The translations under genes were made by a program, and so were the position numbers. This document shows, one piece after another, positions 24,348 through 25,374 of a stretch of 64,000 nucleotides of DNA. How positions within the stretch are numbered: position 1 is the first letter of the stretch; each line of letters opens with the position of its first letter. The notes under the pieces are model-generated. The model did not search any database. It was not told the DNA's origin and worked only from the letters and a program-made list of their open reading frames with translations. The DNA is from Rhizophlyctis rosea. Taxonomy: Eukaryota > Chytridiomycota > Chytridiomycetes > Rhizophlyctidales > Rhizophlyctidaceae. Location of the stretch: contig JADGJC010000008.1 in NCBI GenBank assembly GCA_027596075.1, positions 216,842 through 280,841 of the forward strand, written 5' to 3'.

Positions 24348-25374
24348 ATGGTCCGAAATAAGCAGACCGCACGGAAATCAATAGGCGGTAAGGAAGCATT
24401 GTTGATGTCTGAATGCCGATGACGTTTTGATCAGGGAACGCTTGTGTACAGGCAAGGCCCCCATAAAACAACTGGCTGTACGAGCTGCACTACGAGTTCC
24501 ACCTCCGGCCGGGCTCTTCTCGTTCCTTAACCCTCTTATGCGTCTTCCCACGGAACTTCGCATCGACATCATGGATCAAGTGAGAGACTACTTGTTGTCT
24601 TGCGCAAGCACTACCGGCGGAACAGGCAACTTGCTGGCCATCTTGCTGGCCGACAGGTTCTTCAACACGTGTTGCCAGAGCATCCTAGGGGACGTTGAAA
24701 CAGCTCAAGCGCAGTTTGTCGAGGAGAGATTGAAGTTAGTATCAGGATCATATTGACCTTGCTTCACCGGTGCATGTATAGCTGATTTTTGTAATCCCAT
24801 CGCTCAGAACCCTGAAGCCGACTATCAGCAACAACAATACCACACCCACCGTTATCAACTTCCCAGCAGACCTCGAATACTACCTCCTCCCACAATTGCG
24901 CATCCTCGAAAACCCAGCGTTCGATGTTGGACCACACCTGCGTCATATCTACAATGCGTGCAACCAGCAACACCAATTACATGTTCAAACCGCCTTTCGT
25001 CTGTTTCCCCACCTGGAGTTTAGCAAGCACAACCACCTACCATCATGTCAAGTCGCTTGGGCGACGCTATTTCGCGGGAAGCTTGGGACGAAGAGATGGA
25101 TGGAGACAAGGGGAATCTTGAGTGGGAAGGGGAAAGGGAGGCCGCAAAATCATGGAGCGTGCAGGAACCTCTCAGGCGTTCACGCTTTATGAGGGTGTTG
25201 CGGAACCCACGTGTGTGCGTCGATCAGGATCATGTTATTGGTGGATTGGGTCTCAGTGCAGACGAGATTGAGAGTACAAGTTGGGATTGGGCATTTGTGA
25301 GTGGGTTTGATGGGCGCATTCATTTGGGGAAGAGGAATGGTGAGGGGGTGGTTGGGCGTTATTTGGCGTTGTGA
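24348..25374 (+). CDS. Histone H3 N-terminal tail mimic joined to an F-box-like protein
   Basis: Exon 1 (24348-24387) and exon 2 (24452-24734) are joined by a 64-base GTAAGG...ACAG intron; exon 3 starts at 24807. The spliced start reads MVRNKQTARKSIGG then KAPIKQLAVRAA. It follows the first 26 residues of histone H3 with 18 or more identities and no gaps, keeping Arg2, Lys4, Arg8, Lys9, Ser10, Lys14 and Lys18; Lys23 is Arg and position 27 is again basic. The histone fold is absent. Instead the frame continues into LMRLPTELRIDIMDQV, which resembles the start of an F-box helix, and a Leu-rich helical region. The C-terminal end is unsettled: one frame stops at 25192, another coding-looking frame runs from about 25045 to 25374, and a weak GTCGCT donor (25052) to a TGCAG acceptor would join them. 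H3-like modification or reader binding of the tail is inference. Confidence 0.7.

What the first reader, a model, noticed from the sequence alone, without database searches (positions are those of the whole stretch)
24348..24560. Histone H3 N-terminal tail copied onto an F-box-like protein
After removal of a 64-base intron the protein begins with a sequence that follows histone H3 residues 1-26 without gaps and keeps Arg2, Lys4, Arg8, Lys9, Ser10, Lys14 and Lys18 (core KQTARKS), but has no histone fold; it runs into LMRLPTELRIDIMDQV, an F-box-like helix. H3-tail mimics are known in a few proteins (for example, short mimics in G9a), but a near full-length tail at the true N-terminus of an F-box-like protein is, as far as I know, not described. 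The phase-1 intron inside the Gly-Gly pair hints at exon capture from an H3 gene. If methylated or acetylated like H3, the tail could draw chromatin readers to an SCF ligase or titrate them.
Basis: partly seen in the sequence, partly recalled or inferred. Interest (0 to 1): 0.88.

Follow-up and report, generated by a model that had tools for sequence, protein, structure and literature searches.

The report
Histone H3 tail on F-box-like protein
In one eukaryotic genome the start of a histone H3-type gene is joined to a gene of an F-box-like family, and the copied tail still spells most of the H3 tail although its DNA has changed at nearly every silent site, so the protein may imitate histone H3; whether it is made and works is not yet shown.

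Summary
ATG 24348, a 64-base intron (24388-24451) and exon 2 give MVRNKQTARKSIG|GKAPIKQLAVRAAL..., matching 17 of 21 residues of this genome's own H3 tail. The intron sits at the same codon and phase (Gly13, phase 1) as in two of three H3 genes and a CENP-A-like gene, so the tail descends from an H3-type gene. High identity stops at Ala21, where the three H3 genes have another intron. Residues 1-21 differ at nearly all synonymous sites (13.5-15 of about 17) but few nonsynonymous ones (4.5-5 of about 46); 0 of 285,000 neutral simulations reproduce this. The tail diverged under protein-level selection, though some may predate the fusion. The downstream part belongs to a family (22 six-frame matches) that is F-box-like only by weak, sub-threshold profile matches; the 17 other members whose leaders were read show no H3 tail. 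Against function: the family's C-terminal motif is in another frame; no transcript data; no relative found. A second locus (C238) carries a perfect H3 tail 1-36 without a histone fold. Most likely a real H3-derived tail mimic; a decaying chimera is the main rival.

The parts
24348..24387 (+). exon 1: Met + H3-like residues 1-12 and the first base of Gly13 (M VRNKQTARKSIG G-)
   Evidence: identity counts
24388..24451 (+). 64-nt GT-AG intron, phase 1 in the Gly13 codon; same position and phase as intron 1 of H3 genes C46 and C502 and the first intron of the CENP-A-like gene C112
   Evidence: splice sites read by eye
24452..24477 (+). rest of the well-conserved tail, H3-like residues 13-21 (G KAPIKQLA)
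24478..24513 (+). weakly H3-like stretch, residues 22-33 (VRAALRVPPPAG), 4 of 12 identical; follows the place where H3 intron 2 lies in the three own H3 genes; homology uncertain
24514..24734 (+). F-box-like region (LFSFLNPLMRLPTELRIDIMDQV...FVEERLK), in the same exon as residues 14-33; member of an expanded family
   Evidence: weak Pfam F-box-like matches of relatives
24735..24807 (+). inferred second intron (GTTAGT...CTCAG, 73 nt)
   Evidence: read by eye; relatives also change frame here
24808..25192 (+). inferred exon 3 (LL..RIL.NPAFD family motif), frame ends at a stop at 25190-25192
25024..25374 (+). open frame holding the family's C-terminal motif (FMRVLRNP...), out of frame with exon 3; no intron joining them was found by eye

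Best explanation
SHOWN: a gene whose predicted N-terminus is the tail of an H3-type gene (two exons with the H3 intron between them), joined in one exon to a member of a large F-box-like family. SHOWN within this genome: residues 1-21 changed under strong protein-level constraint while synonymous sites were replaced almost completely. INFERRED: after removal of Met the protein shows a free H3-like tail (V-R-N-K-Q-T-A-R-K-S-I-G-G-K-A-P-I-K-Q-L-A). The kept blocks QTARKS and GGKAP are, from established knowledge (recalled), the contact stretches of H3K9 methyltransferases/HP1 chromodomains and of Gcn5-type acetyltransferases. INFERRED: H3-tail enzymes or readers bind or modify it, which either brings them to a Skp1-cullin-type ligase as substrates or sequesters them. 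Confidence: H3-derived fusion about 0.9; tail functional as a mimic about 0.45; ligase-adapter mechanism about 0.25.
For: Intron at Gly13 phase 1 shared with two own H3 genes and the CENP-A-like gene. 17 of 21 residues identical. Residues 1-21 against C46, C502, C312: 14.5, 15, 13.5 synonymous differences over 16.6-16.8 sites, but 4.5-5 nonsynonymous over about 46; no neutral run of 285,000 kept 17 residues with as many synonymous codon changes. Residues 22-32 show 11 nonsynonymous differences over about 22 sites (Fisher 17/21 against 4/12 for residues 22-33, p = 0.010, post hoc). The 17 other family members whose leaders were read show no H3 tail. The genome has chromodomain and Pre-SET matches 110 bases apart on C551 (50847-50963 and 51073-51372), the make-up of Clr4/SUV39 H3K9 methyltransferases, with a SET-like NHSCDPN read by eye, so a plausible writer exists. 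Precedents: PAF15, Sgo1.
Against: C-terminal family motif out of frame. F-box profile: no match for this protein, best relative 22.7 bits against a cut-off of 24.3, and no F-box protein among five PDB matches of the family profile at E <= 10. No relative carrying the fusion was found: 397 candidates, none at E <= 1; 2 candidates, none at E <= 10; how far that database covers this organism's kin is unknown. Part of the selection may date from when the tail belonged to a complete H3 variant. A1V and T3N touch the residues that tail-end readers use. The genome also holds histone-tail scraps that look like relics (C17, C614).
Confidence: 0.5

Rival explanations
1. A decaying chimera: an H3 gene fragment landed before an F-box-like gene, and the whole is now a pseudogene; the signs of selection were inherited from a former complete H3 variant.
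For: C-terminal motif out of frame; of six relatives read through that part, C427 has an in-frame stop and C236 ends early, while four keep one frame. Other histone-tail fragments without a readable fusion exist: C17 (tandem pieces of H3 exons) and C614 (H4 tail in a frame other than the long open one). V1 and I11 are shared with the CENP-A-like gene C112 (MVR...NTARKSIKG), so a divergent H3 variant could be the source.
Against: C17 is still DNA-similar to the H3 genes, as expected of a young neutral copy; here blastn finds no similarity to them at E <= 0.01 while the protein is kept. The inferred exons 1-3 have no stop before 25190.
Confidence: 0.3
2. The tail serves only as a nuclear import signal (H3 tails are importin ligands), without reader or enzyme mimicry.
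For: The tail is basic; nuclear import by H3 tails is known (recalled, not from a call).
Against: An import signal needs charge rather than the exact order VR.KQTARKS.GGKAP.KQLA, including uncharged Q5, T6, A7, S10, G12, G13, A15, P16, Q19, L20, A21, all kept.
Confidence: 0.15
3. The H3-like exon 1 is not spliced to exon 2, and the F-box-like protein starts further down (for example at Met 24538).
For: No transcript data; in relatives an in-frame Met often lies about 6-30 residues before the LP motif.
Against: The splice is canonical and at the H3 intron position; residues 14-21 are in the same exon as the F-box-like part and constrained like 1-13; the NP before the LP motif, shared by many relatives, lies upstream of that Met.
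Confidence: 0.05

Closest known systems
PAF15 (PCLAF), H3-like N-terminus read by UHRF1
   Same: H3-like sequence at the true N-terminus of a non-histone; its N-terminus is VRTK and binds the UHRF1 PHD finger as ARTK of H3 does (passages of PMC8034647; PMC7060239; PMC11187062); here VRNK. A ubiquitin ligase is involved in both pictures.
   Different: PAF15 is a substrate of the ligase; here the tail would sit on the ligase adapter. The resemblance here (17 of 21) includes QTARKS and GGKAP, and it comes from an H3-type gene by its intron.
[quoted passage not shown]
   Same: Free N-terminal H3-like end on a non-histone (abstract and other passages of PMC9253516).
   Different: Four residues (AKER) described in the passages seen; no H3 gene origin is claimed there.
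Internal H3K9 mimics (WIZ, LIG1, ATF7IP; G9a site recalled)
   Same: ARKS-type motif methylated by H3K9 enzymes (passages of PMC10611923; PMC6172828 on ATF7IP seen only in the search listing).
   Different: Short motifs inside proteins, not an H3-gene-derived N-terminal tail (recalled).
CENP-A and other H3 variants
   Same: H3-type N-terminus; shared Gly13 intron; V1 and I11 also in the CENP-A-like C112.
   Different: They keep the histone fold; this protein has none detected.

Membership tests
Histone H3-tail mimic | H3 tail sequence with modifiable residues kept | tested here: met
   17 of 21 residues; R2, K4, R8, K9, S10, K14, K18 kept; T3, T11, R17 lost
Histone H3-tail mimic | Not itself a histone | tested here: met
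   no histone match listed in the window; no Pfam match in the protein
Histone H3-tail mimic | Bound or modified by H3-tail readers or enzymes | not testable with these tools
   needs peptide binding or mass spectrometry
Histone H3 / H3 variant | Histone fold | tested here: not met
Histone H3 gene origin | Intron position shared with H3-type genes of the same genome | tested here: met
   Gly13 phase 1 in C46, C502, C112; absent in C312. The A21 intron of the three H3 genes is absent here.
F-box protein | Profile match to an F-box family over the curated cut-off | tested here: not met
   this protein: none; family: 7 of 17 segments match PF12937 at E <= 1, best 8.3e-5, 22.7 bits against 24.3; no F-box protein among five PDB matches of the family profile
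F-box protein | F-box fold; binding to Skp1 | not testable with these tools

The most novel reading that the evidence does not exclude
This organism repeatedly builds H3-tail proteins by joining whole H3 tail exons to other genes at H3 exon borders (Ala21 here; Lys36 at C238), and selection keeps them: a genome-encoded set of nucleosome-free H3 tails, one of them on a ubiquitin-ligase adapter, that compete with or redirect the enzymes and readers of the histone code.
Probability: 0.22. Interest if true: 0.88.

Novelty: new variant of a known kind. Interest (0 to 1): 0.62.

Why it matters
Known histone mimics are mostly short motifs (recalled). A tail taken with its intron from an H3-type gene, kept for about 21 residues and placed on a possible ligase adapter, would be a direct evolutionary route from histone to mimic. 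It would also let one ask which tail residues matter outside the nucleosome: the changed ones (A1, T3, T11, R17) against the kept ones. Among the titles and abstract starts listed I saw no such fusion; several lists were capped, and only open-licence papers are held, so a description elsewhere cannot be excluded.

Tried and rejected
Convergence: rejected because of the shared intron. Chance: rejected. Young copy of an H3 gene: rejected, since a DNA search with 411 bases finds only itself and blastn finds no similarity to the H3 genes at E <= 0.01. Direct origin from CENP-A C112: shared V1, I11 and intron position, but different codons and a different tail; left open as a hint. Relatives elsewhere: searches gave none; a family profile found one short relative without an H3 tail (P0001). 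PDB profile search: five matches, none an F-box protein; the best, a repeat protein (7rdr, E 6.3e-7) with no stretch passing on its own, I take as an artefact. Literature: a search on chytrid F-box expansion gave nothing used. An intron that would bring the C-terminal motif into frame was looked for by eye and not found. The C238 gene model after its second exon could not be settled (a stop or an unusual intron). The taxon was not established. A first neutral simulation used a codon threshold stricter than observed (17 changed codons against 16 observed); one search repeats it with the observed values.

Full report
WHAT IS THERE. The window is G000:C613:216842-280841 of a 44.1 Mb assembly. From ATG 24348, exon 1 (24348-24387), a 64-nt GT-AG intron (24388-24451) and exon 2 (24452-24734) read MVRNKQTARKSIGGKAPIKQLAVRAALRVPPPAGLFSFLNPLMRLPTELRIDIMDQV.... 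The stretch from residue 14 into the F-box-like part is one open frame, so the join of residues 14-33 and the domain does not depend on splicing; only residues 1-13 do. No other ATG of the window comes near (10 of 13 against 5; 30 shuffled tails reach 6 at most).

DESCENT FROM AN H3-TYPE GENE. The genome has three H3 genes with the standard tail, C312, C46 and C502, and a CENP-A-like gene, C112. C46, C502 and C112 have a phase-1 intron in the Gly13 codon, where the candidate has it; C312 lacks it. The three H3 genes have a further intron in the Ala21 codon, which the candidate lacks. The candidate matches H3 at 17 of 21 residues up to Ala21 and at 4 of 12 beyond. So high identity ends at an H3 exon border. 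This fits a fusion of H3 exons 1-2 to the other gene, though weak similarity beyond residue 21 may be real.

SELECTION. Over residues 1-21 the candidate and C46, C502, C312 differ by 14.5, 15 and 13.5 synonymous changes over 16.6-16.8 sites, and by 4.5-5 nonsynonymous changes over about 46 sites; over residues 22-32 by 11 nonsynonymous over about 22. In neutral simulations of 10 to 60 substitutions, none of 95,000 runs per H3 gene (285,000 in all) kept 17 residues together with as many synonymous codon changes; keeping 17 residues alone is common with few substitutions (for instance 3,099 of 20,000 runs with 10). A first version with a threshold of 16 residues and 17 changed codons also gave none (24,000 runs). 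The contrast 17/21 against 4/12 (p = 0.010) was chosen after seeing the data. The H3 genes are closer to each other (dS 0.31-0.77 over residues 1-32), partly perhaps through codon bias. The limit of the test: it cannot say how much of the constraint acted before the fusion.

THE DOWNSTREAM PART. It belongs to a family with 22 six-frame matches at E <= 1 for one member (the query itself and the candidate are among them, and several are weak). Of 21 other members fetched, the leaders of 17 were read (7, 10 of the 14; the other 4 gave no frame that passed my motif filter). None of the 17 shows an H3 tail; for several the true start is not settled. Seventeen segments including the candidate were aligned. 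The pattern is roughly NPF..LP.E(L/I/V)...IF......LLLVNK.FN. Seven of 17 match Pfam F-box-like at E <= 1, best 8.3e-5 and 22.7 bits, under the cut-off of 24.3; the candidate matches none. The family profile finds no F-box protein in the PDB at E <= 10. I read it as F-box-like, not as a proven F-box. Exon 3 carries the family motif LL..RIL.NPAFD, but the C-terminal motif FMRVLRNP lies in a different frame (25024-25374). Of six relatives read through that part, four keep both in one frame (C609, C65, two on C3), C427 has an in-frame stop and C236 ends early. The candidate protein would thus end about 50 residues after the break with unrelated sequence, unless the assembly is wrong there.

OTHER H3 TAILS IN THE GENOME. 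The pattern for KQTARK has 10 sites against 2 for the reversed control; of the 10, five are H3-type tails (C46, C238, C312, C502 and the candidate), one is C620, and four look like chance. GKAPRKQ has 5 against 0; the TKAARKS pattern has 7 against 3. C238 encodes a perfect H3 tail 1-36, then GRSIAESLENISSEDEEE, with no histone-fold match listed on that contig. Its tail DNA differs from C312 at 9 bases in 8 codons with no amino-acid change; 0 of 20,000 neutral runs do that, with the same caveat on timing. Its junction lies at Lys36, where C46 and C502 have an intron. The non-tail part has no other match in the genome. C17 holds tandem pieces of H3 tail exons that look like a relic. C620 holds an internal [11 protein letters not shown] in a lysine/proline-rich frame. 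A control with H4 shows an isolated H4 tail piece at C614, in a different frame from the long open frame there. So partial histone copies arise in this genome and can decay, which is why the relic reading keeps 0.3.

HOW IT MAY WORK. Kept: R2, K4-S10, G12-P16, K18-A21. Changed: A1V, T3N, T11I, R17I. QTARKS and GGKAP are known contact stretches for H3K9 enzymes/HP1 and for Gcn5 (recalled). The genome has chromodomain and Pre-SET matches 110 bases apart on C551, as in Clr4/SUV39 enzymes; a Pfam scan of that stretch failed for stops, and many of the 38 chromodomain hits may be transposon-borne (inference). A valine at position 1 is compatible with PHD binding in PAF15 (VRTK; passages of PMC8034647 and PMC11187062); a change at T3 may weaken it (T87A weakens human DPPA3; passages of PMC11187062). 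The most likely use is therefore as a K9/K14-type mimic, with the ligase-adapter role inferred from the F-box-like part.

LITERATURE. Passages on Sgo1 (PMC9253516), H3K9 mimicry (PMC10611923), PAF15 (PMC7060239; PMC8034647), DPPA3 (PMC11187062) and the abstract of PMC5663869 were seen. The listings of searches show no H3-tail/F-box fusion; several were capped, and only open-licence papers are held.

VERDICT. A real and unusual H3-derived tail on a non-histone, with in-genome evidence of protein-level selection and a second case at C238; expression and function are open, and the frame break keeps the relic rival alive.

Noticed in passing
G000:C238, about 17092-16600 minus (L032, L051, L054): Perfect H3 tail 1-36 ([37 protein letters not shown]) followed by an acidic non-histone sequence and no histone fold; 9 base changes and no amino-acid change against H3 gene C312. 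The gene model further down is unsettled.
   Followed up: partly
G000:C17, about 87306-87680 + (L056, L057): Tandem partial copies of H3 tail exons, apparently a relic.
   Followed up: partly
G000:C620, about 78080 minus (L045): Internal H3-like motif [18 protein letters not shown] in a frame with KSPVV/KSPAA repeats.
   Followed up: partly
G000:C614:136913-136987 minus (L091): Isolated H4 tail piece ([23 protein letters not shown]), in a frame other than the long open frame of the place.
   Followed up: partly
G000:C482, about 110006-110331 minus (L050): Second CENP-A-like sequence with a degenerate N-terminus.
   Followed up: no
G000:C27, about 68486-68680 + (L049): H3 core fragment ([30 protein letters not shown]...) overlapping a long open frame in another frame; possibly a further relic.
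   Followed up: no
G000:C3, C42, C235, C611, C630: Expanded, clustered family of F-box-like genes, many with leader motif (S/T)NPF..LP.E; one short relative in the protein database (P0001).
   Followed up: partly
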